A stretch of DNA of 64,000 bases. Source: Baekduia soli (GTDB lineage Bacteria; Actinomycetota; Thermoleophilia; Solirubrobacterales; Solirubrobacteraceae). Position 1 is the stretch's first letter, and each line of letters begins with the position of its first letter. The notes under the pieces are model-generated. The model made no database searches and was not told where the DNA came from. It saw only the letters and a list, made by a program, of their open reading frames with translations. Location of the stretch: assembly GCF_007970665.1 (NCBI RefSeq), contig NZ_CP042430.1:1054001-1118000 (forward strand). Reading direction: 5' to 3'. Both the position numbers and the translations under genes were made by a program. Of the stretch, positions 41,521 to 62,490 are shown in pieces.

Positions 41521-41528
41521 GGCGTCGA

Positions 41529-41538
41529 ACAGTAGAGT
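41529..41538. promoter_or_regulatory. Possible overlapping divergent -10 elements between bluB-cobT and the cob operon
   Basis: TAGAGT (41533-41538, plus) lies 7-8 bases before the presumed start of the riboswitch RNA. TACTGT (41534-41529, minus) lies 8-9 bases before the GTG of bluB-cobT, which would then be leaderless. Both fit TANNNT; no clear -35 boxes are seen. Confidence 0.35.
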
Positions 41539-41542
41539 GCGC

Positions 41543-41650
41543 CTGGTACGCGCGGCGGACGAGGAATCCGGTGGAAGTCCGGGACGGTCGCGCCACTGTG
41601 ACCGGGCCGTCAGGCCTGGGAGTCAGAAACTCGGCCGCTGCGGACCCTTC
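41543..41650 (+). ncRNA. Cobalamin (AdoCbl) riboswitch controlling the plus-strand cob operon
   Basis: The conserved core is present in order: GAGGAATCCGGTGGAAGTCC (41561-41580), GGTCGCGCCACTGTGACCGG (41586-41605) and the B12 box around AGTCAGAAACTCGG (41621-41634). An expression hairpin follows immediately. Binding of adenosylcobalamin would switch off translation of the cob genes. Confidence 0.92.
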
Positions 41651-41654
41651 GATG

Positions 41655-41678
41655 ACGGGACGCCCGATCCCGTGGAGG
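41655..41678 (+). promoter_or_regulatory. Riboswitch expression hairpin and ribosome binding site
   Basis: ACGGGA-CGCCCGA-TCCCGT (41655-41673) directly followed by GGAGG (41674-41678). The stem abuts the ribosome binding site, fitting translational control through the L5-L13 kissing loop. An almost identical element lies before cbtB. Confidence 0.75.
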
Positions 41679-41683
41679 ACACG

Positions 41684-41707
41684 ATGCACCCGGTGATCGC
41701 AGCGTGA
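41684..41707 (+). CDS. 7-codon leader ORF (MHPVIAA) coupled to the cob operon
   Basis: ATG at 41684 sits 5 bases after a strong GGAGG, and its TGA (41705-41707) overlaps the GTG of the next gene (41704) as GTGA. The next gene has no ribosome binding site of its own and is in a different frame (20 bases offset), so it is probably translated by re-initiation after this leader. The peptide itself may have no function. Confidence 0.55.
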   Translation: MHPVIAA

Positions 41708-42288
41708 GACGGCTGGTGGTGGTGCGCCACGCACCGACCGAGGCGACGCGCGCGTTCGCATTCCCGGCCGACGAGCCGCTCGACGACCGCGGTCGGTCTG
41801 CGGCGTCGGCGCTCGCAGCGTCGTTGCCGTCGGGCTACGACATCCTGAGCAGCCCCGCACGTCGCTGCCTGGAGACGATCGAGTGCGCCGGGCTGGCGGC
41901 GCCGACCGTCGACCCCGCCTTGGCCGAGTGTGACTTCGGATCGTGGGCCGGACAGAGCCTCGACACGTTGACCGCGACCGATCCCGACGCGGTCCGCGCT
42001 TGGATGACCGACCCCGGCGCGGCGCCGCACGGCGGCGAGAGCCTCGTCGAGTTCGCAGAGCGCATCGCCCGCTGGCTCGACGATCAGGCGCAGCGAGACG
42101 GCAGCGCTGTGGTCATCACCCACGGCGGCGTCGCCAAGGCCGCGGTCGTCCACGCGCTCGGCGCGCCGCTTGAGGCGTTCTGGCGCATCGACGTCGCCCC
42201 GCTCGCCGTCACCGAGTTGCACGCGCACGACGGGCGCTGGACGCTGACGCGCACCAACACCACCTCTCCGACGGCGGCAGCGGCGTGA
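41704..42288 (+). CDS. cobC: Histidine phosphatase, probable alpha-ribazole phosphatase
   Basis: 194 residues, GTG start. Phosphoglycerate-mutase-like fold: LVVVRHAPTEAT (catalytic His, RHA rather than the usual RHG), LSSPARRCLETIE, LAECDFGSWAGQSL, GGESLVEFAERI and the second His in VVITHGGVAKAAVVHAL. In this context the likely role is removal of phosphate from alpha-ribazole-5'-phosphate or adenosylcobalamin-phosphate. First gene of the 13-gene plus operon, under the cobalamin riboswitch; overlaps cbiB by 4 bases. Confidence 0.82.
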   Translation: MRRLVVVRHAPTEATRAFAFPADEPLDDRGRSAASALAASLPSGYDILSSPARRCLETIECAGLAAPTVDPALAECDFGSWAGQSLDTLTATDPDAVRAWMTDPGAAPHGGESLVEFAERIARWLDDQAQRDGSAVVITHGGVAKAAVVHALGAPLEAFWRIDVAPLAVTELHAHDGRWTLTRTNTTSPTAAAA

Positions 42289-43181
42289 TTGCCGTGGCCC
42301 TCGCGGGCGGATACGCCGCCGACCTGGTGCTCGGCGACCCCCAGCGCGGCCATCCCGTCGCGGGCTTCGGCCGCCTGGCCCAGCGAATTGAGGCGATGAC
42401 CTACGCGCCGTCGCGCGCTCGGGGCGCCGCCTACGCCACCGCGCTCGTCGGCGGCGCGGCCGCCGTCGGCGGCCTGGCCGGCCGCCGGCTCGGCCGGGAC
42501 GCCGCGTTGGCGGCCGCGACCTGGATCGCGCTTGGTGGCCGCTCGCTCACGCGCGTCGCCGCCCGGCTGGCCGACGAGGTCGAACGCGGCGACCTCACCG
42601 CCGCCCGCGCGACGCTGCCCTCGCTCTGCGGCCGCGACCCCGAGGCGCTCGACGCCGACCGACTCGTGCGCGGGGCTCTCGAGTCGGTCGCGGAGAACAC
42701 GGCCGACGCCGTCGTCGGCGCGCTCGTCTGGGGCGCGGCGGCGGGGCCGGCCGGCGTCCTCGGCTATCGCGCCGCCAACACGCTCGACGCGATGGTCGGC
42801 CACCGCAGCGCCCGTTACCGCGAGTTCGGGTGGGCCTCGGCCCGCCTGGACGATCTCCTGAACCTGCCCGTCGCTCGCGTGTGCGCCCTGCTGACCGTCG
42901 CCTGCTCGCCGCTGGTCGGCGGCTCGCCGAGCGCCGCGGCGCGCACCGCCTGGAACGACGGCCGCCACCACCCGAGTCCGAACGCCGGTCGCGTCGAGGC
43001 CGCGTTCGCCGGCGCGCTGACGGTGCGCCTCGGTGGGCCTCTGGCCTACGGTCGTGTCGCCGAGGAGCGCCCCACCCTCGGCGACGGGCGCGCCCCGACC
43101 GTCGCCGACCTGCGGCGCGCGATCCGCCTCTCGCACGCCGTCGGCGCAGCCGCTCTCCTGACCTGCGCGGTGCTGCGATGA
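42285..43181 (+). CDS. cbiB: Adenosylcobinamide-phosphate synthase (CbiB/CobD)
   Basis: 298 residues. Opens AVALAGGYAADLVLGDPQRGHPVAGFGRLAQRIE and contains ESVAENTADAVVGALVWGAAAGP, RAANTLDAMVGHRSARYREFGWASARLDDLLN: characteristic of the membrane-bound CbiB family, which joins (R)-1-amino-2-propanol (phosphate) to adenosylcobyric acid. Four or five hydrophobic segments. The Bradyrhizobium/Pseudomonas name CobD is often used; CbiB avoids confusion with the decarboxylase. Confidence 0.93.
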   Translation: MIAVALAGGYAADLVLGDPQRGHPVAGFGRLAQRIEAMTYAPSRARGAAYATALVGGAAAVGGLAGRRLGRDAALAAATWIALGGRSLTRVAARLADEVERGDLTAARATLPSLCGRDPEALDADRLVRGALESVAENTADAVVGALVWGAAAGPAGVLGYRAANTLDAMVGHRSARYREFGWASARLDDLLNLPVARVCALLTVACSPLVGGSPSAAARTAWNDGRHHPSPNAGRVEAAFAGALTVRLGGPLAYGRVAEERPTLGDGRAPTVADLRRAIRLSHAVGAAALLTCAVLR

Positions 43182-44695
43182 AGGGCGCATTGCTCGTTGC
43201 TGGCACGCACTCCGACGCGGGCAAGTCGATGGTCACCGCCGGCATCTGCCGCTGGCTGCGTCGCCAAGGCGTGCGCGTCGCGCCGTTCAAGGCCCAGAAC
43301 ATGGCGCTCAACTCGGTCGTCGCGCGTGGCGGCTTCGAGATCGGCCGCGCGCAGGCGATGCAGGCCGCGGCGGCCGGGATCGAGCCCGAGGTCGCCATGA
43401 ACCCCATCTTGATCAAGCCGTCCGGGGCACGGCAGAGCCAGGTCATCCTGATGGGTCGCCCGTACGCCGACGTCAGCGCCCGCAGCTACCAGGAGCTCAA
43501 GGACGAGCTGCGCCCGGTCGTCGCCGAGGCGCTGGCCGACCTGCGCGCGCGCTACGACGTCGTCGTCTGCGAAGGCGCCGGAAGCCCGGCCGAGATCAAC
43601 CTCCGCGCTGCCGACCTGACGAACATGGGCCTGGCCCGGGCCGCCAACCTGCCCGTGCTGCTCGTCGGCGACATCGACCGCGGCGGGGTCTTCGCGTCGC
43701 TCATCGGGACGCTCGTCGCGCTCGCCCCGGAGGACCAGCGCCACCTCGCGGGCTACATCATCAACAAGTTCCGCGGTGACGAGTCGATCCTGGCGCCCGG
43801 ACTCGAGGACCTCGAGCGTCGCACCGGCCGCCCGACGCTCGGCGTGTTGCCGTTCGTCGAGGACCTCGGCGTCGACGCCGAGGACTCGCTGGCCATCGAG
43901 ACCGCCCGTCGCGACCGGCCGGGGGCGACCGGCACGCTCGACGTCGCGGTCGTCCGCCTGCGCTGGATGAGCAACTTCACCGACCTCGACGCACTGACCC
44001 ACGAGCCGGGCGTACGCGTGCGCTTCACCCGCGCGGCGGCCGACATCGCCCGCGCCGACCTCGTCGTCCTACCCGGCACGAAGGCGACCGTCGAGGACCT
44101 CGAGCGCCTGCGCACCGACGGCCTCGACCACGCACTGGCCACCCGCGCCTCTACCGGCGACCCAATCATCGGCGTGTGCGGCGGCTACCAGCTGCTGGGC
44201 CGGACGATCGACGACGACGTCGAGTCACGCACGGGCCGCGTCAACGGTCTCGGCCTGCTGCCGGTGACCACTACCTTTGTCGCCGACAAGGTCCTGCGCC
44301 CCGTCACCGGCCACAGCGCGCTGCTGGACAGCGCGGTCGGCGGCTATGAGATCCGCCACGGCCGCCCCGTGGCCGCCGGTGGCAATCCGCTCATCGTCAC
44401 CGCGGACGGCACGCCCGAGGGGTGCGTAGCGGGCGCGACGCTCGGCACCTCCTGGCACGGCGTGCTCGAGCACGACGACGCCCGGCGGGCGCTGCTGCGC
44501 TGGGTCGCCGCCCGCCGGGGGCTGCCGTTCGTTCCCGCCCCCCACACGACCTTCGCCGCCGAGCGTGAGCGCCAGCTCGACGCGCTCGGCGACCTCGTCG
44601 AGCACCACCTCGACACCGATCGGCTCGCCGCGCTCATCGACGGCGGCGTGCCCGACGGACTCCCCGACCTGCTGCTGGAGGGCGCCACGTGCTGA
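43178..44695 (+). CDS. cobQ: Cobyric acid synthase (glutamine-hydrolysing)
   Basis: 505 residues. It amidates carboxylates b, d, e and g of adenosylcobyrinic acid diamide. P-loop-like GTHSDAGKSMVTAGI at residues 8-22, KAQNMALNSVV, MNPILIKPSG, then the class I-like amidotransferase half with nucleophile Cys334 in GVCGGYQLLGRTI and His in GTSWHGVLEHDDARR. Length is normal for CobQ/CbiP. Overlaps cbiB (4 bases) and cobN (7 bases). Confidence 0.95.
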   Translation: MKGALLVAGTHSDAGKSMVTAGICRWLRRQGVRVAPFKAQNMALNSVVARGGFEIGRAQAMQAAAAGIEPEVAMNPILIKPSGARQSQVILMGRPYADVSARSYQELKDELRPVVAEALADLRARYDVVVCEGAGSPAEINLRAADLTNMGLARAANLPVLLVGDIDRGGVFASLIGTLVALAPEDQRHLAGYIINKFRGDESILAPGLEDLERRTGRPTLGVLPFVEDLGVDAEDSLAIETARRDRPGATGTLDVAVVRLRWMSNFTDLDALTHEPGVRVRFTRAAADIARADLVVLPGTKATVEDLERLRTDGLDHALATRASTGDPIIGVCGGYQLLGRTIDDDVESRTGRVNGLGLLPVTTTFVADKVLRPVTGHSALLDSAVGGYEIRHGRPVAAGGNPLIVTADGTPEGCVAGATLGTSWHGVLEHDDARRALLRWVAARRGLPFVPAPHTTFAAERERQLDALGDLVEHHLDTDRLAALIDGGVPDGLPDLLLEGATC

Positions 44696-47600
44696 GGTTC
44701 ATCACCACCGCCGACACCGAAATCCTGGCCACCGCCTCCGCCGTCCGGCGCCTGCCCGAAGCCTTTCCCACGGTGAGGTGCGCCAACCCGCAGGGCACGC
44801 GTGATCTCGACCCGTTCCTCGACGAGGTGCTGCACGGCGCCCGCGTCGTCGTCATCCGCGTGCTCGGCGGCCGGCGCGGCTGGCAGGGCGGCGTCGACCG
44901 CCTGGCCGAGCGCTGCCGGGCTGACGGCATCGCCCTGATCGCGCTCGGCGGCGAGGCGCGGCCCGACGCCGAGATGACCGTGCTGTCGACGGTGCCGGCG
45001 GGGGTGGTGGCCCAGGTCGGCGAGTACCTGCTGGCCGGCGACGTGGACAACATCGAGCAGATGCTGCGGTTCCTGGCCGACACGCTGCTCCTGCACGGGT
45101 TCGGCTTCGAGGAGCCGCAGGCGGCCGGCGACCTCGGCGTCTACCTCCCCGGCCGCGGGGACGTGACCATCGAGGAGGCGCTGGCTGGCCGTGCGGCCGA
45201 CGCTCCCGTCGTCGGCATCGCCTTCTACCGCGCGCACCGCCTGACCGGCAACACGGCGTTCGTCGACGAGCTGTGCGCCGCGGTGCGCCGCGCGGGCGGC
45301 CACCCCGTCGCGGTCTGGTCGCAGACGCTGCGCCGCGACCACACCGACGGCCGCGTCCCCGCGCTCGAGCTCTTCGCGGGCCACGTCGACGCGCTCATCA
45401 CCACCATGTTGGCCACCGGCGGCTCCAACCGCGGCGATGCGGCCGGGGCGACCGAGGAGGAGATGTCGTGGGACGCCTCGGCGCTGGAGGCGCTCGACGT
45501 CCCGGTGATCCAGGCCCTGACGGTGACGATGTCGCGGGCGCGCTGGGACGAGGGCAGTGAGGGCCTGCTGCCGATCGACGCCGCCACCCAGGTCGCCATC
45601 CCCGAGTTCGACGGGCGCATCATCGGCGGGCCGATCTCGTTCAAGGAGCGCGATCTCGAGGACTCGCCGGTCGGCGTGCCCGTCCCGCACTACGTCCCCG
45701 ACCCGGAGCGCTGCGACCGCCTCGCCCAGCTCGTCGTGCGCCACGCCCGGCTGCGCACGCAGCAGCGGCGCAAGATCGCGATCGTCCTGACCGCGTTCCC
45801 GACCAAGCACGCGCGCATCGGCATGGCTGTGGGCCTTGACACCCCGGCCAGCGCCATCCGGCTGCTTCACCGGCTGCGCCAGGACGGCATCGACGTCCGC
45901 GACATCCCTGCCGACGGCGACGCGCTCATGCACGCCCTGATCGCCGGCGGCGGTCACGACCCCGAGTTTCTCACCGACGAGGTGCTGGCCGCCGTGCCGC
46001 TGCGGCTCCCCGTAGCCGAGTACCTGCAGTGGTACGGCACGCTGGACCCGCGGCTGACCACGTCGATGGAGGAGCGCTGGGGCCCGGCGCCGGGCGACCG
46101 CTACCGCGACGACGGCGACCTGGTCATCGCCGGTCTCGATCTCGGCGACGTGGTGGTGTTGATCCAGCCGCCGCGCGGCTACGGCGACGATCAGGTCGGC
46201 ATCTACCACGACCCCGAGCTCGCGCCGGCGCACCACTACCTGGCCGCCTACCGCTGGCTCGACGCCCACTGGGGCGCCGACGCGATCGTCCATCTCGGCA
46301 AGCACGGCACGCTGGAGTGGCTGCCGGGCAAGATGTTGGCCTTGGGGGCCGCGTGCGCGCCCGACGTCGCGCTGGGCTCGATGCCGCTCGTCTACCCCTT
46401 CGTGGTCAACGACCCGGGTGAGGGCGCCCAGGCCAAGCGGCGCGCTCACGCCGTCGTGATCGACCACCTCGTGCCGGCGATGCGTCGCGCCGAGAGCTAC
46501 GACGAGCTGGCCGACCTGGAGGCGCTGATGGACGAGTACGCGCGCCTGGAGGTGCTCGACCCTTCCAAGCTGCCCGGTCTCGGCGCCCAGATCTGGGAGG
46601 CGATCGAGCAGGCCAACCTCCAGGAGGACCTCGGGATTGAGAACCGGCCCGACGACGCCGGCGCCCTGGTCGAGCACCTCGACGGCTACCTCTGCGAGGT
46701 CAAGGACGTCCAGATCAAGGACGGCCTGCACATCCTCGGCGCCGCGCCCGAGGGCCCGCAGCTGCGCGGGCTGGTCGCCGCCATCGGCCGCCACGGCGTC
46801 GGCGACGTGCCCGGCCTGCGGCGCGCGGTGGGCGCGGCCTTCGGGTTGGACGAGCCCGCGCTTGTCGCCGCGCCCGGCGCACGGGCGACCGGGGGCGAGC
46901 GGCTGGTCGCCCGCTTCCGCGGCACGGCGCACCGCGGCAGCGACCTCATCGATCGCCTCGAGGAGGCCCAGCACGCGCTGTTGGTGTCGTTGTCGGAGCA
47001 CGACTGGGATCCCGCTCGCCCCGAGGAGGTCTGCCGCTCGGTGCTCGGCCTCGACGACGTCGGGGTGGTCAGCGCGCTGCGCTTCGCCGCGACCGAGATC
47101 GTCCCGCGGCTGCTACGCACGACCGACGAGCTCGACAACGTGCTCGGGGCACTGCGCGGCCATCACGTTCCCAGCGGGCCGTCAGGCGCGCCGACGCGCG
47201 GGCGTCTCGACGTGCTGCCGACCGGGCGCAACTTCTACTCGGTCGACCCGCGCGCGCTGCCGTCCGAGCTGTCCTACGCCACCGGGGTCAAGCTCGCCGA
47301 CGCCGTGCTCGAGCGCCATGTCGCCGACTCCGGCGCGTTGCCCGAGATGGTGGGGCTGGTCGCCTGGGGCACCGCCGCGATGCGCACCCAGGGCGACGAC
47401 GCCGCCGAGGTCTTCGCGTTGCTTGGCGTGCGGCCCACGTGGCACCCCTCCTCGCGGCGCGTCACCGGCCTGGAGGTCGTGGCGCTCGAGGAGCTGGGCC
47501 GGCCGCGCATCGACGTCACGCTGCGCATCTCCGGGTTCTTCCGCGACGCGTTCCCCCACCTCATCGGCCTGCTCGACGACGCGGTGACCATGGTCGCCGG

Positions 47601-48438
47601 CCTCGACGAGCGCGACGCGGACAACTACGTCGCCAAGCACGCGCGGGCGCAGGCGGCACGCCTGGCCGGCGAGCTTGACACCGCCGAGGCGTGGCGGCTG
47701 AGCACGACGCGGATCTTCGGCTCCAAGCCCGGGACCTACGGCGCCGGGCTGAGCCAACTGCTCGAGACCCAAGACTGGCGCGACGACCGCGACCTCGCCG
47801 CCGTCTACGAGGCCTGGGGCGGGTTCGCCTACGGCCGCGGACTGCATGGCGTCCCGGCCGCCGGCGCGATGCGCGCATGCTTCGAGCAGATCGAGGTCGC
47901 GGTCAAGAACGTCGACTCGCGCGAGCACGACCACCTCGACAGCGATGACTACTACCAGTACCACGGCGGGATGGTCGCCACCGTGCGGGCGCTGCGCGGC
48001 GGCCGCGAGCCGGCGGCGTACCTCGGCGACAGCGCCGACCCCGAGCGCGTGAAGGTCCGCTCGCTGGCCGAGGAGACGCGGCGCGTCTTCCGCGCCCGCG
48101 TCGCCAACCCGGCGTGGATCGGCTCGATGGTCCGCCACGGGTACAAGGGCGCCGCCGAGCTCGCCGCGACCGTCGACTACCTGTTCGGCTACGACGCCAC
48201 GACCGGCACGACGTCGGACTGGATGTACGAGCAGGTGGCCGAGAAGTACCTGCTCGACGAGCAGGTCGCGGCGTTCATGGACCAGGCCAACCCCTGGGCC
48301 GCGCGGGGCATCGCTGAGAAGCTGCTGGAGGCCGCCGAGCGCGGGCTGTGGGCCGAGCCGGAGGGCGGGACGCTGGAGTCGATCCGCGCGCGGTACCTGG
48401 CGCTCGAAGATCAGCTGGAAGGCGCGGCCACGTCATGA
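44689..48438 (+). CDS. cobN: Cobaltochelatase large subunit CobN
   Basis: 1249 residues, GTG start. The large H-type chelatase subunit that inserts Co2+ into hydrogenobyrinic acid a,c-diamide with ATP, related to ChlH/BchH. Seen: RGDAAGATEEEMSWDASALEALDVPVIQA, LGKHGTLEWLPGKMLALG (conserved chelatase core), NDPGEGAQAKRRAHAVVIDHLVP and near the C-terminus DSREHDHLDSDDYYQYHGG. The presence of CobN marks the aerobic, late-insertion pathway. Partner subunits here are not CobS/CobT of the proteobacterial type but the ChlI/D-like next gene. Confidence 0.95.
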   Translation: MLRFITTADTEILATASAVRRLPEAFPTVRCANPQGTRDLDPFLDEVLHGARVVVIRVLGGRRGWQGGVDRLAERCRADGIALIALGGEARPDAEMTVLSTVPAGVVAQVGEYLLAGDVDNIEQMLRFLADTLLLHGFGFEEPQAAGDLGVYLPGRGDVTIEEALAGRAADAPVVGIAFYRAHRLTGNTAFVDELCAAVRRAGGHPVAVWSQTLRRDHTDGRVPALELFAGHVDALITTMLATGGSNRGDAAGATEEEMSWDASALEALDVPVIQALTVTMSRARWDEGSEGLLPIDAATQVAIPEFDGRIIGGPISFKERDLEDSPVGVPVPHYVPDPERCDRLAQLVVRHARLRTQQRRKIAIVLTAFPTKHARIGMAVGLDTPASAIRLLHRLRQDGIDVRDIPADGDALMHALIAGGGHDPEFLTDEVLAAVPLRLPVAEYLQWYGTLDPRLTTSMEERWGPAPGDRYRDDGDLVIAGLDLGDVVVLIQPPRGYGDDQVGIYHDPELAPAHHYLAAYRWLDAHWGADAIVHLGKHGTLEWLPGKMLALGAACAPDVALGSMPLVYPFVVNDPGEGAQAKRRAHAVVIDHLVPAMRRAESYDELADLEALMDEYARLEVLDPSKLPGLGAQIWEAIEQANLQEDLGIENRPDDAGALVEHLDGYLCEVKDVQIKDGLHILGAAPEGPQLRGLVAAIGRHGVGDVPGLRRAVGAAFGLDEPALVAAPGARATGGERLVARFRGTAHRGSDLIDRLEEAQHALLVSLSEHDWDPARPEEVCRSVLGLDDVGVVSALRFAATEIVPRLLRTTDELDNVLGALRGHHVPSGPSGAPTRGRLDVLPTGRNFYSVDPRALPSELSYATGVKLADAVLERHVADSGALPEMVGLVAWGTAAMRTQGDDAAEVFALLGVRPTWHPSSRRVTGLEVVALEELGRPRIDVTLRISGFFRDAFPHLIGLLDDAVTMVAGLDERDADNYVAKHARAQAARLAGELDTAEAWRLSTTRIFGSKPGTYGAGLSQLLETQDWRDDRDLAAVYEAWGGFAYGRGLHGVPAAGAMRACFEQIEVAVKNVDSREHDHLDSDDYYQYHGGMVATVRALRGGREPAAYLGDSADPERVKVRSLAEETRRVFRARVANPAWIGSMVRHGYKGAAELAATVDYLFGYDATTGTTSDWMYEQVAEKYLLDEQVAAFMDQANPWAARGIAEKLLEAAERGLWAEPEGGTLESIRARYLALEDQLEGAATS

Positions 48439-50219
48439 GCCGCGCACCTGCCTTTCCGCTGTCGGCGATCGTCGGCCAGGAGGACCTCGTCGAGGCCCTC
48501 CTCGTCTGCGCCGTGCACCCGGTGGTCGGCGGCGTGCTCGTCCGTGGCGAGCGCGGCACGGCCAAGTCGACGGCCGTGCGGGCGCTGGCGCCGATGCTCG
48601 GCTCCGACGCGCCGCTGGTGGAGCTGCCGTTAGGCGCGACGCTGGACCGCCTCGTCGGCGCGCTGGACGTGCGCGCGGCGCTGGGCGGCGAGCACCGGCT
48701 CGAGGCCGGGCTGCTGGCGCGCGCCGACGGCGGCCTGCTGTACGTCGACGAGGTCAACCTGCTGGGCGACCACCTCGTCGACGCGCTGCTCGACGCCGCC
48801 GCCGCAGGCGAGGTCACCGTCGAGCGCGACGGCGTCAGCGCCGTGCAGGACGCGCGTTTCCTGCTGGTGGGGACGATGAACCCCGAGGAGGGCGAGCTGC
48901 GCCCGCAGCTGCTCGACCGCTTCGGGCTCGGCGTGCAGATCACCGGACCGCGCGACGTGGCGACCCGCGTGGAGATCGTGCGGCGGCGCATGGCCTATGA
49001 CAACGACCCGATCGCCTTCGCCGCAATGTGGGCCGACGCCGAGGCCGCACTGGCCACGCGGCTGGCCTCCTCTCGCGCGCGGGTCGCCGGCGTCCGGCTC
49101 GGCGACCGCGAGCTGCAGCGCATCGCCGCGGTCTGCGCGCAGCTCGACCTCGACGGCATCCGCGGTGACCTCGTCTGCGCCCAGGCCGCGTGCGCGCTGG
49201 CCGCACTCGACGGCGACGACGCGGTGCAGGACACGCACGTCGACCGCGCCGCCCACCTGGCGTTGCGCCACCGCCTGCGCCGCGACCCGCTCGCGCCGCC
49301 GCCCGACGGCGGCGACCGCGACCCGGCCATCGACGAGGCGCTGGCGGAGGCCGACGACGCGCCACCACCTCCCGCACCGCCACCGCGGGCCGAGCGCGAC
49401 CCGGCGCCGGCGAGCGCGAGCGAGCCACCGGCGTGGTCGCCCGATCCCGACCTGGGCGGCACACCGCCACCGCCGCCGGCGCCCTTCGAGCCGCAGGGGC
49501 TCCCGCCCCACCTGACCACGCCGGCGCCGGTGCCGTCGCGACTGCCCGAGGCCGCGCTGCGACCGATCCGTCGTCCGCGCGGCGGGCTCGCCGTCGTCGA
49601 TGGCCGCCCGGCGCACGGCGACGACGAGATCGCGGCGCTGCCCACGCTGCTCGCCGCGCTACGCGGCGACCCCGGCCCGCGCACGCCGGTCCACGGCGGC
49701 GGGCGCGGCGCGCTGCTGTGCCTCATCGTCGACACGAGCGGCTCGATGGCCGCGCATCGCCGTCTCGCGCGGGTCAAGGGCGCGCTCGAGGTCGCGTTGC
49801 GACGCGCCTACGCCCGCCGCGACCTCGTCGCCGTCGTCGCGTTCAGCGGCGAGGGCGCGCGCACGCTCGTCGCACCCGGTGACCCGCTCGAGTGCGCCGC
49901 CGGCGCGACCCGCGAGCTGCCCGTCGGCGGCCGGACCCCGCTCGCGGCCGGCCTCGACCACGCCGCCGCGCTGCTGCGCGCCGCCGACCACGGCCGCGCG
50001 GCAGGTCGGACGCGCATCGCCGTCTTGCTGACCGACGGCCGCGCCGCCGACCCCGACGGCCACGCCCGGCGCGCGCTGGCCGGCGTCGTGGCGGCCGCCG
50101 ACCGCACCGTCGTCGTCGACCTCGAGGAGGGCCGTGCCCGTCTGGGCCTGGCCTCCGCGCTGGCCGACGCCGCCGGCGCCGACCTGACCCGCCTCGTCAT
50201 CCCCGAAAGGGCCGCATGA
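48435..50219 (+). CDS. ChlI/ChlD-like AAA+ and VWA cobaltochelatase subunit (CobN partner)
   Basis: 594 residues. AAA+ domain (about 1-290): VRGERGTAKSTAVRAL Walker A (about 37-45), GGLLYVDEVNLLGDHLVDALLD Walker B (about 97), MNPEEGELRPQLLDRFGL. Then a Pro/Asp-rich linker (about 300-385; PPPPAPPPRAERDPAPASA) and a von Willebrand A domain with MIDAS LIVDTSGSMAAHRR (about 430) and GGRTPLAAGLDHA. This fuses the I and D motor subunits of Mg-chelatase and, being inside the cob operon right after cobN, presumably drives cobalt insertion. A role in Mg chelation is unlikely, as no (bacterio)chlorophyll genes are present in the window. Confidence 0.88.
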   Translation: MSRAPAFPLSAIVGQEDLVEALLVCAVHPVVGGVLVRGERGTAKSTAVRALAPMLGSDAPLVELPLGATLDRLVGALDVRAALGGEHRLEAGLLARADGGLLYVDEVNLLGDHLVDALLDAAAAGEVTVERDGVSAVQDARFLLVGTMNPEEGELRPQLLDRFGLGVQITGPRDVATRVEIVRRRMAYDNDPIAFAAMWADAEAALATRLASSRARVAGVRLGDRELQRIAAVCAQLDLDGIRGDLVCAQAACALAALDGDDAVQDTHVDRAAHLALRHRLRRDPLAPPPDGGDRDPAIDEALAEADDAPPPPAPPPRAERDPAPASASEPPAWSPDPDLGGTPPPPPAPFEPQGLPPHLTTPAPVPSRLPEAALRPIRRPRGGLAVVDGRPAHGDDEIAALPTLLAALRGDPGPRTPVHGGGRGALLCLIVDTSGSMAAHRRLARVKGALEVALRRAYARRDLVAVVAFSGEGARTLVAPGDPLECAAGATRELPVGGRTPLAAGLDHAAALLRAADHGRAAGRTRIAVLLTDGRAADPDGHARRALAGVVAAADRTVVVDLEEGRARLGLASALADAAGADLTRLVIPERAA

Positions 50220-50935
50220 GCGACACCACCAACGACCAACGCCCGCCGGGCTACGTCGCGCGCTGTTCGCTGCGCGGCGCCGGTTCCTCCCAGGACCCCG
50301 AGGACGCCCCGATCGAGCACCCGATCGCGCTGCTGCGCAACACGGCGCCGGGGGTCGACGTCCCGCATTCGGCCGACGACCGGGGCACCGCCGAGCCTCG
50401 CCGGCGCAAGCCGCGCGACCGCCCGCTGCTCGTCGTGGTCACAGGGGACGGCAAGGGCAAGAGCACATCGGCCTTCGGGATGCTCCTGCGCTCCTGGAAC
50501 CGCGACTACCGCTGCGGGGTTGTGCAGTTCATCAAGTCCGGGAAGTGGAAGGTCGGCGAGCAGCGCGCCGCCGAGGCGCTCGGCGGGATCGACTGGATGA
50601 AGACCGGCGACGGCTGGTCGTGGATCTCCAAGGACCTCACCGAGTCGGCCGACCTCGCCCGCGCCGGCTGGGAGCAGGTCAAGGCCTTCATCGCGCAGGA
50701 GCGCTACGAGTTCCTCCTGCTCGACGAGTTCACCTACCCCATGAAGTGGGGCTGGGTCGACGTCGACGACGTCGTGCAGACGCTCGTCGACCGGCCGGGC
50801 TTCCAGCACGTCGTCGTGACGGGTCGCGACGCCCCACCGGCGCTGATCGAGGCGGCCGACCTCGTCTCCGAGGTGACGCTCGTCAAGCATCAGATGGAGC
50901 AGGGCATCCGCGGCCAGCAGGGGATCGAGTGGTAG
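50216..50935 (+). CDS. cobO: Cob(I)yrinic acid a,c-diamide adenosyltransferase
   Basis: 239 residues: an N-terminal extension of about 70 residues that looks disordered, then the CobO/BtuR/CobA fold with P-loop VVVTGDGKGKSTSAFGML (about 80-90), the WNRDYRCGVVQFIKSGKWKVGE segment and LLDEFTYPMKWGWVD. It transfers adenosyl from ATP to Co(I), forming the upper ligand. Overlaps the preceding gene by 4 bases and the next by 7. Confidence 0.94.
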   Translation: MSDTTNDQRPPGYVARCSLRGAGSSQDPEDAPIEHPIALLRNTAPGVDVPHSADDRGTAEPRRRKPRDRPLLVVVTGDGKGKSTSAFGMLLRSWNRDYRCGVVQFIKSGKWKVGEQRAAEALGGIDWMKTGDGWSWISKDLTESADLARAGWEQVKAFIAQERYEFLLLDEFTYPMKWGWVDVDDVVQTLVDRPGFQHVVVTGRDAPPALIEAADLVSEVTLVKHQMEQGIRGQQGIEW

Positions 50936-51783
50936 AGGTCCTGCTCATCCTCGACGGCGCCAGCGACCCGTGCGGCGAGAGCCTCGCCCAGGCCCGGATG
51001 CCACACCTCGACGCGCTGTCGCGGGCGGGCGAGGTGACGCGCCTGACCACCGTCCCGCCCGGCCTGCAACCCGGCTCGGAGAGCGCGATCCCCGTCCTGC
51101 TCGGCCACACGCCCGCGGCGCCGGTCGACCGCGCCGCGATCGAGGCAGCCGCGCACGGCATCGACATCGGCGAGGCCTGGCGTGTCGACGTCCGGACCGC
51201 CGATGGCACCCGCGCCGACGCGACGGCCACGGCCCATGCCGCCGACAGGCTGCGCGACGCCGGACACCGGGTCCACCACCTCCGTGGCCACCGCCTGCTG
51301 GTGGCCGGCGCAGCTCCGGTGGCCACCGACGAGCTGGTCGTCTGGCCGCGCGGCGCGACGCTCCCGCGCGTGCTCGACGCGCGCACGCTCGTCATCGGCG
51401 CCCGCGGCGCGGCCATCGGGATCGCGCGCCTGCTCGGCGCCGACACCGTCGTCCCCGACGCCGCGACCGGCGACGTAGACACCGACCTGGCCGCCAAGCT
51501 CGACGCCGCCCGCGCGGGCGTCGCCGAGCGTCGCGACCGCGTCGTCGTTCACGTGGGCGGCGCCGACGAGGCCGCCCACCGGCGCGACCGCGCCGCCAAG
51601 GTCGCCTTCCTCGAGCGCGTCGACGCCGAGCTCATCGGGCCGCTCGCGGCGCTCGTCGACGACGCCGACGGCACGCTGCGCATCTGCCCCGACCACGGCT
51701 GTGACCCGGACACCGGGCGCCACGACGCCGTGCCTGTCCCTCACGTCCGCTGGGGACCGGCCCGGTCGGCGGTGCCCGCGTGA
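50929..51783 (+). CDS. Alkaline-phosphatase-superfamily protein resembling archaeal iPGM (ApgM-like), role unknown
   Basis: 284 residues, GTG start. N-terminal VLLILDGASDPCGESLAQAR (metal-binding Asp), then MPHLDALSRAGEVTRL and the nucleophile-type segment PGSESAIPVLLGH (Ser), and C-terminal metal ligands in VVVHVGGADEAAHRRDRAAK and RICPDHGCDPDTGRHDAVPVPHV. These match, in order, the metalloenzyme domain of cofactor-independent phosphoglycerate mutase of the archaeal type, but the product is shorter (about 400 is usual) and lacks much of the inserted transferase domain. It lies between cobO and cobB with overlaps on both sides, so a job in cobalamin synthesis, for example a phosphatase or phosphotransferase on a nucleotide-loop precursor, is an inference from location only. 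Confidence 0.7.
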   Translation: MVEVLLILDGASDPCGESLAQARMPHLDALSRAGEVTRLTTVPPGLQPGSESAIPVLLGHTPAAPVDRAAIEAAAHGIDIGEAWRVDVRTADGTRADATATAHAADRLRDAGHRVHHLRGHRLLVAGAAPVATDELVVWPRGATLPRVLDARTLVIGARGAAIGIARLLGADTVVPDAATGDVDTDLAAKLDAARAGVAERRDRVVVHVGGADEAAHRRDRAAKVAFLERVDAELIGPLAALVDDADGTLRICPDHGCDPDTGRHDAVPVPHVRWGPARSAVPA

Positions 51784-53162
51784 TCCCGCGCCTGGTCGTG
51801 GCCGGCACCAGCAGCGGCGCGGGCAAGACGACCGTCGCCTGCGGCCTGATCGGCGCGCTGCGCCACCGCGGCCTCACCGTCCAGGGCTTCAAGGTCGGCC
51901 CCGACTACATCGACCCCAGCCACCACGCGCTGGCCGCCGGGCGCCCAGGCCGCAACCTCGACGCCTTCCTCAGCGGCCCCGAGCTCATGGTTCCGCTCCT
52001 GCGCCACGGCGGTGCCGGCGCCGACATCGCGATCATCGAGGGCGTCATGGGCATGTTCGACGGCGCCTCCGGGCGCGGCGAGCTGGCCTCCACCGCCCAC
52101 GTCGCCAAGCTCCTGGACGCCCCGGTCCTGCTCGTCCTGGACGCCTCGGCCATGGCCCGCTCCGCAGCCGCCATGGTCCACGGGTTTCGCACCTTCGACC
52201 CCGACGTCAACGTGGCCGGCGTGGTGTTCAACAAGGTCGGCTCCGACACCCACGAGCAGCTCCTGCGCGAGGCCGTCGCCGACAGCGGCCTTCCGGTCCT
52301 CGGCGCGCTGCGCCGCGACGAGCGTGTCGTCACGCCCGAGCGTCACCTCGGCCTCGTGCCCGTCGCCGAGCGCGAGCCCAAGGCCCGCGCCGCGCTCGAC
52401 GCCCTCGCCGAGGCGATGGCGCGCCACGCCGATCTCGATGCGGTCGTCCGCCTGGCCGGCAGCGCGCCCGAGACGCCCGGCCCTGCGTGGCGCCCCGACG
52501 CCGACGGGCCGAGAGTGGGTGAGCGGGGACAGGTCCGCGTCGCCGTCGCCAGGGGGCCGGCGTTCTCCTTCCACTACCAGGAGAACCTCGAGCTGCTTAC
52601 CGGCGCCGGCGCGCAGCTGGCCGAGTTCGACCCGCTGACCGACGCGCACCTGCCCGACGGCGCCGGAGCCCTGGTGCTCGCCGGCGGCTTTCCGGAGATC
52701 TTCGGCGAGCAGCTCGCGGCCAACGCGACGCTGCGCGAGGACATCCGCCGCTTTGCCGCCGCCGGCCGGCCGATCCTGGCCGAGTGCGGCGGGCTGCTGT
52801 ACCTGTGCGAGGAGCTCGACGGCCACGCGATGTGCGGCGTGCTGCCCGCGCGCGGCACGATGACGGAGGGCCCTCTGACCCTCGGCTACCGCGAGGCGGA
52901 GGTCGCCACCGCCACCCCCTGGCTGACCCCTGGTCAGCGCGTCCGCGGCCACGAGTTCCACTACTCCAAGGTGCAGGCCCGCGATCCGCGCGCGCCCGCG
53001 GCGTGGCGGCTCTCGACGCGCGCGGTCTCCAAGCCCGAGGGGATCGTCCGCGGCGCCGTCCAGGCGTCCTATCTGCACGTCCACTGGGCCGCCCACCCGG
53101 CGATCGCGCACGCCTTCGCCCGCGCGGCGGCGACCGCTTCGGCACGCGACGCGGCCGCATGA
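51780..53162 (+). CDS. cobB: Hydrogenobyrinic/cobyrinic acid a,c-diamide synthase
   Basis: 460 residues, GTG start. It amidates the a and c side chains using glutamine and ATP. The N-terminal ATPase half has AGTSSGAGKTTVACGL (P-loop), GFKVGPDYIDPSHH and EGVMGMFDGASG; the amidotransferase half has nucleophile Cys336 in LAECGGLLYLCEEL and the C-terminal His segment VRGAVQASYLHVHWAAHP. CobB acts before CobN in the aerobic route. Overlaps both neighbours by 4 bases. Confidence 0.95.
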   Translation: MIPRLVVAGTSSGAGKTTVACGLIGALRHRGLTVQGFKVGPDYIDPSHHALAAGRPGRNLDAFLSGPELMVPLLRHGGAGADIAIIEGVMGMFDGASGRGELASTAHVAKLLDAPVLLVLDASAMARSAAAMVHGFRTFDPDVNVAGVVFNKVGSDTHEQLLREAVADSGLPVLGALRRDERVVTPERHLGLVPVAEREPKARAALDALAEAMARHADLDAVVRLAGSAPETPGPAWRPDADGPRVGERGQVRVAVARGPAFSFHYQENLELLTGAGAQLAEFDPLTDAHLPDGAGALVLAGGFPEIFGEQLAANATLREDIRRFAAAGRPILAECGGLLYLCEELDGHAMCGVLPARGTMTEGPLTLGYREAEVATATPWLTPGQRVRGHEFHYSKVQARDPRAPAAWRLSTRAVSKPEGIVRGAVQASYLHVHWAAHPAIAHAFARAAATASARDAAA

Positions 53163-54721
53163 CCCTGACGCTCGTCCTCGGGGGCACCCGGTCGGGCAAG
53201 AGCGCGCACGCCGAGGCGCTGGCCGCCGCGACGGGTCTGCCCGTGCGCTACGTGGCGACGGCCGACGGCAGCGACGCGTCGATGCGCGCGCGCATCGACG
53301 CGCACGTGGCCCGGCGCCCAGGGTCGTGGTCGACCGTCGAGGCCGACGGCAGCCTCGCCGAGGCGGTCTCCGGCGCGCAGGACTGCGTCCTGGTCGACGG
53401 CCTCGGGCCGTGGATCGCCACCCGGATCCATCGCGGCGGCGGCTTCGGCGACCCGTCGCGCCTGCCGGCGATCGCGCAGGAGATCGCCGACGACCTCGAC
53501 CGTACCACCGCCACCCTGACCACGGCCGCGCACGCCATCGTCGTCGCCGAGCAGGCCGGTGAGGGCGTGCTGCCGCCCGACGCCGCATCCCGGGCGTGGC
53601 TCGACCTGCTCGGCGATGCGACGCAGCGCCTCGCCGCCCACGCCGACCGCGTCGACCTGATCGTCGCCGGACGCGTCGTGCCGGTCGCCGGCTCCGCTCC
53701 CGGCCCTGCCGATGCCGCGCTACGGCGCCACGGCGACCGTGACGTGCGGCCCGGTGATGCCGATCACGCCGTCAACGTCGTCGCCGGCGGGCCGCCGCGC
53801 TGGCTGCAGGCGGCGCTGAACGGCGCCCTGGCCGAGGTCGGACGCTACCCCGACGAGCGACCGGCGATCGCCGCGATCGCCGCGCTGCACGGCCGCGCAT
53901 CGGGCGAGATCGTGCCGACCAACGGCGCCGCCGAGGCGCTGTGGCTGCTCGGGCCGGCACTGCGCCCCACGTTGGCCGCCTGCGTGCACCCGGGCTTCAC
54001 CGAGGCCGAGGCCGGCCTGCGCGCCCACAGCGTACCCACCGTCCGCGTGCAGCGTGACCCCGACCGAGGCTTCGCGCTCGAGCCCGACCGCGTGCCCGAC
54101 GCGGCCGACCTCGTGGTCGTCGGCAACCCCGCCTCCCCGAGCGGCACCCTGGATCCCGCGACCGCAGTCCTGGCCCTGCGCCGTCCGGGACGGGTCGTCG
54201 TCGTCGACGAGGCGTTCATGGACCTCGTGCCCGGCGAGCCGGGCACCCTGGCGCGCCGGGCACTGCCCGACGTCATCGTCGTGCGCTCGCTCACCAAGGT
54301 CCTCGGCATCCCAGGCCTGCGCGCGGGCTACGCCATCGCCCACGCCGAGATCGCCGAGCGCCTGCGCGCCGTGCGGCCCCCATGGTCCGCGAACACCCTG
54401 GCCTTGACGGCCCTGGCTGCGGCCGCCGCGGCGCCGTCCGAGCTCAGTGCCATCGCCCGGCGTGCCGCCGACCAGCGCCAGGACCTGCACGCGCGCCTGG
54501 CGGCCATCGACGGCGTGCGCATCTGGCCGGGCGCGGCCAACTACGTGCTCATCGCCGTCGATGACGGCGAGGCGCTGGTTGCCGCCCTGCGCGCTCAGGG
54601 GATCGCGGTGCGGCCCGCCGCCTCATTTCCCGGCCTCGACGCCCGCCACGTCCGGGTCACCGCTCGCGACCCGGGAGCCAACGCGCGGCTGGCCGACGCG
54701 GTCGCCGGAGCGCTCGCATGA
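53159..54721 (+). CDS. cobU-cobC: Fusion: CobU (cobinamide kinase/guanylyltransferase) + CobC/CobD-type threonine-phosphate decarboxylase
   Basis: 520 residues. Residues 1-185 are CobU: Walker A LVLGGTRSGKSAHAE (6-15), RIDAHVARRPGSWSTVE with the GMP-carrying His (His49), LVDGLGPW and VVAEQAGEGVLPPD. Residues about 195-520 are a PLP aminotransferase-fold enzyme (GDADHAVNVVAGGPP, NPASPSGTLDPAT, VVDEAFMDLVPG and Lys of RSLTKVLGIPGLRAGYAI), the L-threonine-O-3-phosphate decarboxylase that makes (R)-1-amino-2-propanol phosphate. The two activities, linker synthesis and activation of the linker-bearing cobinamide, belong to the same branch. Both active sites look complete. Confidence 0.92.
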   Translation: MTLTLVLGGTRSGKSAHAEALAAATGLPVRYVATADGSDASMRARIDAHVARRPGSWSTVEADGSLAEAVSGAQDCVLVDGLGPWIATRIHRGGGFGDPSRLPAIAQEIADDLDRTTATLTTAAHAIVVAEQAGEGVLPPDAASRAWLDLLGDATQRLAAHADRVDLIVAGRVVPVAGSAPGPADAALRRHGDRDVRPGDADHAVNVVAGGPPRWLQAALNGALAEVGRYPDERPAIAAIAALHGRASGEIVPTNGAAEALWLLGPALRPTLAACVHPGFTEAEAGLRAHSVPTVRVQRDPDRGFALEPDRVPDAADLVVVGNPASPSGTLDPATAVLALRRPGRVVVVDEAFMDLVPGEPGTLARRALPDVIVVRSLTKVLGIPGLRAGYAIAHAEIAERLRAVRPPWSANTLALTALAAAAAAPSELSAIARRAADQRQDLHARLAAIDGVRIWPGAANYVLIAVDDGEALVAALRAQGIAVRPAASFPGLDARHVRVTARDPGANARLADAVAGALA

Positions 54722-55914
54722 CCATCACGGTGGTGGGTATCGGCGCCGACGGATGGGCCGGCCTCGCCGGGCCCTCACGGGATGCACTCGCGCGCGCTCG
54801 CATGATACTCGGGGCCGAGCGCCAACTCGGACTGCTGCCACCCGAGATCGCGGCTGAGCGCCGGGCCTGGCCCTCGCCCATGGAGACCGCGGTCGACGAG
54901 GTCGCCTCGGGAAGCCTGGGCGACGTGGTCGTGCTCGCCAGCGGCGACCCGACGCTGCACGGCATCGGAGCCACGCTAGTCCGCAAGGCCGGCACCGACC
55001 AGGTGCACGTCCTGCCCCACCCGTCGTCGTTCTCGCTGGCCTGCGCCCGCCTGGGCTGGTCGCAGGCCGACGTCGAGCTCGTCAGCCTCGTCGCCCGCCC
55101 GCCCGAGACCGTCATCGCTTCGCTGCAGCCCGGCCGGCGCCTCGTCGTCCTGGTCACCGGCAGCGACGGGGCCGCCCGCCTCGCACGCGTGCTCGCCGAG
55201 CACGGCTTCGCCGCGAGCCCGTTCGTCGTCCTGGAGCAGCTCGGCGGCCCGGCCGAGCGCCGCGTCGAGACGACGGCGGGCGAGGCCACCGGCCTGGTCG
55301 CTGACGCGCTGCACCTCGTCGCGGTTACCGTCACCGGAGCGGCCGGGCACCCGCGCACGCCCGGGCTGCCCGACGACGCCTACAGCTCCGACGGCCAGAT
55401 CACGAAGCGCCACATCCGGGCGCTCACCGTCGCCGCGCTGGCCCCGCGGACCGGTGAGCGGCTGTGGGACGTCGGCGCCGGATCGGGCTCGGTGGCCATC
55501 GAGTGGCTGCGCATCGAGCCCAGCGCCGAGGCCATCGCCGTCGAGGCCCGCGCCGACCGTGCCGAGAACATCTCCGCCAACGCGCTCGCGCTCGGGGTCC
55601 CGCGGCTGCAGATCGTGACCGGGAACGCCCCCGGCGCCTTCGCCGGCCTGCCCCGTCCCGACGTCGTCTTCGTCGGCGGCGGCATCACCACGCCGGGCCT
55701 GCTCGACGCCTGCTGGTCGGCGCTGCCCGACGGCGGTCGCCTGGTCGCCAACGCCGTCACGCTCGAGGGCGAGCGCGCCGCGGCAGCCGCCCGTGACGTC
55801 CACGGAGGCACGCTGACCCGCATCGACCTCGCCCACGCCGAACCCGTCGGGACGTTCACCGGCTGGCGAGCGCAGATGACCGTCATCCAATGGGCGACCG
55901 TGAAGGGAGCCTGA
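54718..55914 (+). CDS. cobL: Precorrin-6Y C5,15-methyltransferase (CbiE-CbiT fusion)
   Basis: 398 residues. The N-terminal half is the CbiE-type tetrapyrrole methylase (ITVVGIGADGWAGL, VVVLASGDPTLHGIGATLVRK, HPSSFSLACARLGW), which methylates C5 and C15; the C-terminal half is the class I SAM methyltransferase CbiT (ITKRHIRALTVAALAP, WDVGAGSGSVAIEWLR), which also decarboxylates. This is the standard CobL architecture. Overlaps cobU-cobC by 4 bases. Confidence 0.94.
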   Translation: MTITVVGIGADGWAGLAGPSRDALARARMILGAERQLGLLPPEIAAERRAWPSPMETAVDEVASGSLGDVVVLASGDPTLHGIGATLVRKAGTDQVHVLPHPSSFSLACARLGWSQADVELVSLVARPPETVIASLQPGRRLVVLVTGSDGAARLARVLAEHGFAASPFVVLEQLGGPAERRVETTAGEATGLVADALHLVAVTVTGAAGHPRTPGLPDDAYSSDGQITKRHIRALTVAALAPRTGERLWDVGAGSGSVAIEWLRIEPSAEAIAVEARADRAENISANALALGVPRLQIVTGNAPGAFAGLPRPDVVFVGGGITTPGLLDACWSALPDGGRLVANAVTLEGERAAAAARDVHGGTLTRIDLAHAEPVGTFTGWRAQMTVIQWATVKGA

Positions 55915-55916
55915 CC

Positions 55917-56666
55917 GTGCCCGCCGTCGTGCACTTCATCGGGGCCGGCCCGGGCGCCCCGGACCTGCTCACCCTCCGCGCCGCGCAACTGATCGCCGCC
56001 GCGCCCGTGTGCGTGTACGCCGGCGCACTGGTGCCCGACGAGATCCTCGCCCACGCCCCGGCCGGCGCCCGGCTGGTCGACACCCAACACCTCCATCTCG
56101 ACGAGATCGTCGCCGAGTACGTCGCCGCCGACGAGGCGGGCCTTGACGTCGCCCGCCTGCAGTCGGGTGACCTGTCCATCTACTCCGCGGTCGCCGAGCA
56201 GGCCCGCCGCCTCGACGAGCTCGGCATCGCGTGGGACCTCACGCCCGGCGTGCCCGCCTTCGCCGCCGCCGCCGCGGCCCTGCGCACCGAGCTGACGATC
56301 CCCGAGGTGGCCCAGACCGTGATCCTCACCCGCCACGGCCGGCGGGCATCGGCGATCCCACCCGGCGAGGAGCTGGGCTCATTGGCCGCCCACGGCGCCA
56401 CGCTGGTCATCCACCTCGGCACACAGGCCATCGACGAGATCGCCACGGCATTGATCCCCCACTACGGCGCGAACTGCCCCGCCGCGGTCGTCGCCCGCGC
56501 GAGCTGGCTCGATGAGCTCGTGCTGCGCGGCACGCTCGCCGACATCGCCGGGCGCGTCCAGGACGCGGGCGTGCGGCGCACCGCCACGATCCTCGTCGGC
56601 CCTGCGCTGGCCGCCGCAGGCTTCCGCAACAGTCACCTGTACTCCAAGGCCCGCGCGCGCGAGTGA
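55917..56666 (+). CDS. cobM: Precorrin-4 C11-methyltransferase
   Basis: 249 residues from a GTG at 55917 with GGGAGC 5 bases upstream; an earlier GTG/ATG-class start at 55890 would overlap cobL and add nothing conserved. Tetrapyrrole methylase fold: VHFIGAGPGAPDLLTLRAAQLI, VCVYAGALVPDEILAHAP, LQSGDLSIYSAVAEQ, ILTRHGRRASAIPPGE. It adds the C11 methyl from SAM. Confidence 0.94.
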   Translation: MPAVVHFIGAGPGAPDLLTLRAAQLIAAAPVCVYAGALVPDEILAHAPAGARLVDTQHLHLDEIVAEYVAADEAGLDVARLQSGDLSIYSAVAEQARRLDELGIAWDLTPGVPAFAAAAAALRTELTIPEVAQTVILTRHGRRASAIPPGEELGSLAAHGATLVIHLGTQAIDEIATALIPHYGANCPAAVVARASWLDELVLRGTLADIAGRVQDAGVRRTATILVGPALAAAGFRNSHLYSKARARE

Positions 56667-62105: not shown

Positions 62106-62324
62106 CTAGTGGCAGGGGAATCCGAGGAGGTGACGCGCGTCGTGCACGAACTCGTGCACGGAATGTCCACCGATGATCGACGTCGCGCCTTCCTCGGCAC
62201 CGACGAAAAAGATCAGCAGCATCATCAGGACGCCCGCGAACAGCGCGTACGGCAGCAACTCGCGCGGGGAGACGATGGGAACCGCCGGAGTGCTGCCCCG
62301 GCGATCGAGGGTGACATCGGACAT
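62106..62324 (-). CDS. cbtB: CbtB, small predicted cobalt transporter subunit
   Basis: 72 residues from the ATG at 62324, with AGGAAGG 6 bases upstream. One membrane helix (LLPYALFAGVLMMLLIFFVG, about 24-43) and the typical His-rich end SVHEFVHDARHLLGFPCH, thought to bind cobalt. First gene of the unit cbtB-cbtA-cobG-cobH-cobIJ; 9 bases separate it from cbtA. Confidence 0.93.
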   Translation of the reverse strand: MSDVTLDRRGSTPAVPIVSPRELLPYALFAGVLMMLLIFFVGAEEGATSIIGGHSVHEFVHDARHLLGFPCH

Positions 62325-62330
62325 GCGGTG

Positions 62331-62356
62331 CCTTCCTACGGGATTCTGCGTCCCGT
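62331..62356 (-). promoter_or_regulatory. Expression hairpin and ribosome binding site before cbtB
   Basis: On the minus strand ACGGGA-CGCAGAA-TCCCGT (62356-62338) directly precedes AGGAAGG (62337-62331) and the ATG. The stem sequence is identical to that at 41655-41673. Confidence 0.75.
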
Positions 62357-62378
62357 CGTCGGTGATCGGCTCGCGTGA

Positions 62379-62490
62379 TATGTCCGAGTGTCTGGCTTCC
62401 CGCTCCCGAGCTCGGAGCGGATCACAGTGGCGCGACCGCGCCGGTCTTTCACCGGCTTCCTCGCCCATCACACGCTGGCGCATCATAGCC
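62379..62490 (-). ncRNA. Cobalamin riboswitch controlling cbtB-cbtA-cobG-cobH-cobIJ
   Basis: On the minus strand: GAGGAAGCCGGTGAAAGACC, then GGTCGCGCCACTGTGATCCG, then the B12 box GAAGCCAGACACTCGG, i.e. the full conserved core in the usual order. It ends about 25 bases before the expression hairpin of cbtB. Confidence 0.92.

What the first reader, a model, noticed from the sequence alone, without database searches (positions are those of the whole stretch)
41655..41707. Riboswitch-controlled 7-codon leader ORF drives translation of the 13-gene cob operon
The only strong ribosome binding site after the cobalamin riboswitch (GGAGG, 41674-41678) is placed for an ATG at 41684 that encodes just MHPVIAA and ends in GTGA, overlapping the GTG of cobC. 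cobC has no site of its own and is out of frame with the leader. So the riboswitch would gate a mini-ORF and the operon would be read by re-initiation. A leader peptide between a translational B12 riboswitch and its operon is unusual and could add a second level of control.
Basis: seen in the sequence. Interest (0 to 1): 0.6.

Follow-up and report, generated by a model that had tools for sequence, protein, structure and literature searches.

The report
Riboswitch-gated mini-ORF feeding cobC translation
A vitamin-B12-sensing RNA switch places its only good ribosome landing site in front of a 7-codon mini-gene that overlaps the first gene of the B12-synthesis operon; the layout recurs in many related bacteria with unrelated mini-peptides, so it very probably hands ribosomes on to the operon, as shown once before in the tuberculosis bacterium.

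Summary
A cobalamin riboswitch (41527-41652) is followed by a hairpin, GGAGG (41674-41678) and an ATG (41684) opening MHPVIAA*, whose TGA overlaps the cobC GTG (GTGA, 41704-41707). In 29 distinct loci where cobC directly follows this riboswitch type, 21 have an out-of-frame upstream ORF (uORF) of 6-36 codons ending exactly in GTGA/ATGA on the cobC start. Seven start cobC directly from the same Shine-Dalgarno (SD) site, and one has an interrupted uORF. The peptides are largely unrelated. All 12 distinct start-to-start distances equal 2 modulo 3, and the second cobC codon, when Arg, is always the rare AGA/AGG (15/15, against 9/398 in gene bodies). The same platform before cbtB has no uORF (0/25), nor, with one doubtful exception, do about 69 other actinobacterial cobalamin leaders. 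Best explanation: the riboswitch gates the uORF, which hands ribosomes to cobC by termination-reinitiation; the peptide itself probably does nothing. This mechanism was shown experimentally for the M. tuberculosis ppe2 B12 riboswitch (PMC11260477), so the kind is known. New here are its clade-wide conservation and interchange with direct initiation. Translation itself was not tested.

The parts
41527..41652 (+). Cobalamin riboswitch aptamer (compact type, GGAA at J3/4, short P6 region)
   Evidence: RF00174 35.3 bits; architecture conserved in the 28-sequence alignment
41645..41650 (+). Pyrimidine tract CCCTTC, candidate anti-SD; pairs with GGAGG in the predicted MFE of the leader
   Evidence: MFE of 41527-41690 pairs CCUUC with GGAGG; only a weak excess over shuffles across relatives
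41655..41673 (+). P13-like hairpin ACGGGA-CGCCCGA-TCCCGT abutting the SD; its loop can pair with L5
   Evidence: GGGACGC and TCCC invariant in 28 of 28 (the pattern was part of the search that collected most of them); L5 pairing computed
41674..41678 (+). Shine-Dalgarno GGAGG, entry site for the leader ORF
   Evidence: mean -11.7 kcal/mol in 21 uORF loci
41684..41707 (+). Leader ORF (uORF) MHPVIAA*, 7 codons
   Evidence: equivalents in 21 of 29 cobC-first loci, this one included
41692..41698 (+). GGTGATC, unconserved SD-like site for cobC inside the leader ORF
   Evidence: -8.0 kcal/mol with the anti-SD tail; not conserved
41704..41707 (+). GTGA stop/start overlap coupling the leader ORF to cobC
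41704..42288 (+). cobC-like histidine phosphatase (putative alpha-ribazole phosphatase), first operon gene
   Evidence: PF00300 137 bits; TIGR03162 best NCBIfam hit, 111.5 bits, below its cut-off of 162.9
42285..58155 (+). Remaining 12 genes of the cob operon (cbiB, cobQ, cobN, chelatase ATPase, cobO/cobA, apgM-like, cobB, cobU-aminotransferase fusion, cbiET, two tetrapyrrole methylases, cobK), nearly all overlapping at their junctions
62365..62502 (-). Second riboswitch with the same hairpin platform (internal control)
   Evidence: RF00174 33.8 bits; ACGGGACGCAGAATCCCGT then AGGAAGG
62106..62324 (-). cbtB, started directly from that SD, without a leader ORF
   Evidence: PF09489

Best explanation
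The leader ORF is a landing pad. Without B12 the SD GGAGG is free, ribosomes start at ATG 41684, translate 7 codons, terminate at TGA 41705-41707, and the same ribosome or its 30S subunit reinitiates at the overlapping GTG 41704 of cobC. With B12 the aptamer folds, the P13 hairpin is held by an L5-L13 kissing contact (and perhaps the CCUUC tract pairs with the SD), entry is blocked, and cobC and the NTGA-linked genes behind it are translated less. The uORF peptide has no conserved sequence and most likely no function of its own; what is selected is a start at the SD, an open frame, and a stop on the cobC start. Shown here: anatomy, conservation, frame and codon selection. Inferred: translation, reinitiation, and the B12 response.
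For: 21 of 29 distinct cobC-first loci carry a uORF with an exact 4-nt overlap. The 12 distinct start-to-start distances (17-107 nt) are all 2 mod 3. The uORF SD averages -11.7 kcal/mol, cobC's own site -3.0. cobC codon 2 Arg is AGA/AGG in 15/15, against 9/398 in the bodies, p about 1e-21. The seven loci without a uORF have an ATG 4-14 nt from the same SD, so, apart from the interrupted case, no locus lacks a route into cobC. Controls: the same platform before cbtB has 0/25 uORFs and about 69 other leaders give one doubtful hit. When cobC sits behind cbtA, some loci show cbtA-cobC GTGA overlap or a 21-codon bridging ORF with overlaps at both ends. Precedent: M. tuberculosis uPPE2, where SD, start-codon, stop-position and FLAG experiments show a riboswitch-gated termination-reinitiation relay.
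Against: No ribosome profiling or reporter data were found for this clade. One relative (L098) has an in-frame TAG that ends the uORF 21 nt early, although the same frame reopens at a GTG and ends on the overlap. In the window itself cobC has a fair SD-like site (GGTGATC), so some direct initiation cannot be excluded. The SD-masking structure is weakly supported: the hairpin columns are invariant and give no covariation, and SD pairing exceeds shuffles only slightly (0.85 against 0.73). The loci are related, so the statistics overstate independence.
Confidence: 0.86

Rival explanations
1. cobC is initiated directly at GTG 41704 through GGTGATC or without an SD; the leader ORF is incidental.
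For: GGTGATC pairs with the anti-SD tail at -8.0 kcal/mol in this genome.
Against: The site is absent in most relatives (mean -3.0), while GGAGG, the uORF frame and the stop overlap persist at 12 different distances. Strong SDs 22-114 nt upstream of cobC would have no purpose.
Confidence: 0.06
2. The uORF is a regulatory leader peptide whose sequence or codons stall ribosomes and add a second sensing layer.
For: Short leader ORF under a riboswitch; second residue often His or Gln (11 of 21).
Against: Length 6-36 codons and largely unrelated peptides, no shared codon run or arrest motif seen. No competing terminator or antiterminator was noticed in the leader, but none was searched for systematically.
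Confidence: 0.05
3. The leader and cobC are joined by frameshifting or stop readthrough into one protein with an N-terminal extension.
For: A minor fusion product was seen for uPPE2-PPE2 in M. tuberculosis.
Against: uORF peptides are unconserved, and direct-start relatives begin cobC at the same residue (MRRLLL/MKRLLL) without any extension. In M. tuberculosis the fusion was minor.
Confidence: 0.03

Closest known systems
M. tuberculosis ppe2 B12 riboswitch with uPPE2 relay (Kipkorir et al. 2024, PMC11260477)
   Same: B12 riboswitch; SD next to the L13 hairpin serves a short out-of-frame uORF; uORF stop overlaps the start of the first gene (AUGA there, GTGA here); first gene lacks a strong conserved SD; cob genes follow.
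   Different: First gene is cobC rather than a PPE gene; the peptides here are very short and unconserved (6-36 codons); the arrangement recurs in many Thermoleophilia and alternates with direct initiation; no experiment here.
M. tuberculosis Mbox-pe20 uORF (D'Halluin et al. 2026, PMC12810186)
   Same: Riboswitch with translational platform directly controls a small upstream ORF.
   Different: Mg2+ sensor; the uORF is a highly conserved small protein with a homologue elsewhere, unlike the unconserved peptides here.
Ribo-attenuators (engineered; Folliard et al. 2017, PMC5496857)
   Same: A riboswitch drives a short ORF whose stop overlaps the start of the gene of interest, insulating the switch from the gene.
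   Different: Synthetic, 150-bp leader, TAATG junction, extra hairpin-masked RBS; no such second RBS is conserved in the natural case.
Leader-peptide attenuators (e.g. trp, erm; from general knowledge)
   Same: Very short ORF upstream of an operon.
   Different: They depend on codon content or arrest sequence; none is conserved here.

Membership tests
Cobalamin riboswitch (RF00174) | Covariance-model match above gathering score | tested here: met
   35.3 bits against 31.5
Cobalamin riboswitch (RF00174) | L5-L13 kissing loop and SD in or next to the P13 hairpin (translational platform) | tested here: inconclusive
   Hairpin and SD adjacency invariant; L5-L13 complementarity computed, 3-6 pairs; no covariation because columns never vary
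Cobalamin riboswitch (RF00174) | Binds B12 and represses | not testable with these tools
   Needs in-line probing or reporters
uPPE2-type riboswitch-uORF relay | uORF has the riboswitch-controlled SD; downstream gene lacks one | tested here: met
   -11.7 against -3.0 kcal/mol on average over 21 loci; less clear-cut in the window itself, -9.3 against -8.0
uPPE2-type riboswitch-uORF relay | Out-of-frame NTGA stop/start overlap | tested here: met
   21 of 22 uORF-type loci; L098 excepted
uPPE2-type riboswitch-uORF relay | uORF translated and downstream expression dependent on it by termination-reinitiation | not testable with these tools
   Reporter mutants required
Leader-peptide attenuator | Conserved regulatory codons or arrest motif | tested here: not met
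   Peptides differ in length and sequence

The most novel reading that the evidence does not exclude
The relay ORF is a natural insulator of the kind synthetic biologists built as ribo-attenuators: selection keeps a short, sequence-free ORF between the B12 platform and cobC so that the riboswitch fold is independent of the first gene, and lineages switch between this mode and direct initiation.
Probability: 0.3. Interest if true: 0.6.

Novelty: new member of a known kind. Interest (0 to 1): 0.5.

Why it matters
In M. tuberculosis the B12 riboswitch-uORF relay was discussed as possibly the by-product of a PPE gene invading a cob locus. Finding the same relay at the head of an ordinary cob operon across many Thermoleophilia, with the frame and stop overlap kept while the peptide changes freely, shows it can be a conserved device. 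It also offers a natural comparison set (uORF and direct-start relatives with the same platform) to ask what such a relay adds.

Tried and rejected
Own SD for cobC: GGTGATC found but unconserved. Conserved leader peptide: rejected. uORF as a general feature of B12 leaders: rejected, one doubtful hit in about 69 (the script applied an SD threshold, and 19 leaders gave no SD-preceded start at all) and 0/25 at cbtB. Covariation proof of the P13/anti-SD switch: not obtainable, the columns are invariant, and SD pairing is only slightly above shuffles. The cobC tree is poorly resolved, so the number of gains and losses of the uORF is uncertain. An Actinomycetospora cobC homologue (L118) had no Rfam riboswitch hit.

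Full report
OBSERVATION. Between the cobalamin riboswitch (RF00174, 41527-41652, 35.3 bits) and cobC lie a hairpin ACGGGA-CGCCCGA-TCCCGT (41655-41673), GGAGG (41674-41678), a 5-nt spacer, and ATG CAC CCG GTG ATC GCA GCG TGA (41684-41707). The TGA overlaps the GTG of cobC (41704). cobC has no other in-frame start below its preceding stop. The 16S tail of this genome is GGATCACCTCCTTTCT. GGAGG pairs with it at -9.3 kcal/mol; the region before the cobC GTG contains GGTGATC, which pairs at -8.0 with its GG 10 nt from the GTG. 'No site of its own' is therefore slightly overstated for this genome.

OPERON. The 13 genes are cobC, cbiB, cobQ, cobN, a cobaltochelatase ATPase, cobO/cobA, an apgM-like metalloenzyme, cobB, a cobU-aminotransferase fusion, cbiET, two tetrapyrrole methylases and cobK. 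Nearly all junctions overlap, mostly by 4 nt in NTGA form. The leader ORF is the first link of this chain. Some internal genes have good SD-like sites of their own, so not every gene need depend on ribosomes from the leader.

CONSERVATION. cobC homologues were collected from 61 related genomes and from named genome contigs. The hairpin plus SD was searched as a pattern in 399 genomes of the class: 48 genomes have matches, while the reversed control pattern gives about three hits. Loci were fetched. In 29 distinct loci cobC follows this riboswitch directly. Twenty-one have a uORF starting 5-9 nt after GGAGG and ending exactly on the cobC start (20 GTGA, 1 ATGA), 6 to 36 codons long. Seven have no overlapping uORF and start cobC at an ATG 4-14 nt after the SD. 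One, L098, has MDVSRFFA followed by TAG 21 nt short of cobC; the same frame reopens at GTG and ends on the overlap. The loci span several genera and families of the order plus G164 in another family of the class. The cobC tree has few well-supported inner branches but needs more than one change between the states. Because the pattern contains the hairpin and SD, their invariance in the alignment is partly a result of how the loci were found; the uORF and its overlap were not part of any search.

SELECTION ON THE OVERLAP, NOT THE PEPTIDE. The distance from uORF start to cobC start takes 12 different values (17-107 nt), all 2 mod 3; treated as independent this has a chance of about 3^-12 (my arithmetic). 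The second cobC codon, when Arg, is AGA or AGG in 15 of 15 loci, against 9 of 398 Arg codons in the gene bodies (Fisher p about 1e-21), as needed to make the A of NTGA. uORF SD energies average -11.7 and cobC own-site energies -3.0 kcal/mol. cobC starts with GTG in 20 of 21 uORF loci and with ATG in 7 of 7 direct loci. The peptides share little beyond a frequent MH/MQ/MV start. Related loci inflate these figures, but the direction is not in doubt.

CONTROLS. The same platform also precedes cbtB (PF09489), including at the other end of this window (62106-62502, minus strand). There the SD serves cbtB directly in all 25 loci used. Among about 69 other actinobacterial RF00174 leaders, 49 show a direct SD-start, 19 show neither, and only one has a doubtful uORF over 300 nt away. 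Where cobC sits behind cbtA, the two genes overlap by GTGA in Svornostia abyssi and two other loci. In two loci a 21-codon mini-ORF bridges cbtA and cobC with NTGA overlaps at both ends.

MECHANISM. The most likely mechanism is that the riboswitch controls access to GGAGG, the uORF is translated, and cobC is reached by termination-reinitiation at GTGA. The hairpin abuts the SD in all 28 aligned sequences, and its loop can pair with L5. The MFE of the leader pairs CCUUC (41646-41650) with GGAGG. The masking part rests on weak evidence: the columns are invariant, so there is no covariation, and SD pairing exceeds shuffles only modestly (0.85 against 0.73). Translation, reinitiation and B12 response were not tested.

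COMPARISON WITH THE KNOWN. The M. tuberculosis ppe2 B12 riboswitch controls a uORF, uPPE2, with an AUGA overlap. Expression of PPE2 is lost without the uORF SD or start, falls when the stop is moved, and proceeds mainly by termination-reinitiation. The authors suggested that a PPE gene may have invaded a cob locus. An M. tuberculosis Mbox also controls a small uORF. Engineered ribo-attenuators use the same logic to insulate riboswitches from the downstream gene. No paper in the held library mentions both Thermoleophilia and riboswitches. This is therefore a new member of a known kind, with an unusually clear evolutionary record.

VERDICT. The leader is best seen as a sequence-free landing pad, not a regulatory peptide.

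Noticed in passing
L012:1439-1504 and L117:2439-2504: Where cobC lies behind cbtA, a 21-codon mini-ORF bridges them with ATGA at the cbtA stop and GTGA at the cobC start; the peptides differ (MRGAWRMTLAGRGSSATPLAS and MRGVCRTDRGRRARFGTPAVA).
   Followed up: partly
L098 around 2402-2510: Exception: uORF MDVSRFFA ends at TAG 21 nt before the cobC GTG; the same frame reopens at GTG and ends on the GTGA overlap.
   Followed up: partly
39751-41520 (-): BluB-like nitroreductase fused to CobT-like phosphoribosyltransferase, divergent from the riboswitch.
   Followed up: no
50929-51783 (+): apgM-like metalloenzyme (PF01676/PF10143) inside the cob operon, which also has a CobC-like phosphatase; a possible second phosphatase of the pathway.
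   Followed up: no
53159-54721 (+): CobU fused to a CobC/CobD-type aminotransferase.
   Followed up: no
30331-30456 (+): Match to the EGFOA RNA family (56 bits, gathering score 37.7).
   Followed up: no
L189 about 200-500 (genome 2876334-2876519): Third RF00174 riboswitch of the genome, of another platform type, before a gene starting MMPKILGPLVVG with a signal-peptide-like N-terminus.
   Followed up: no
L107 (CAMCUD010000003.1): Record titled Bifidobacterium breve MAG, but its cbtA-cobC locus closely matches Solirubrobacterales sequences; the title looks wrong.
   Followed up: no
L132 and L014 (G001): A same-genus genome has two cobC copies: one behind riboswitch and uORF, one overlapping by GTGA a long upstream ORF with regulator-like sequence.
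   Followed up: no
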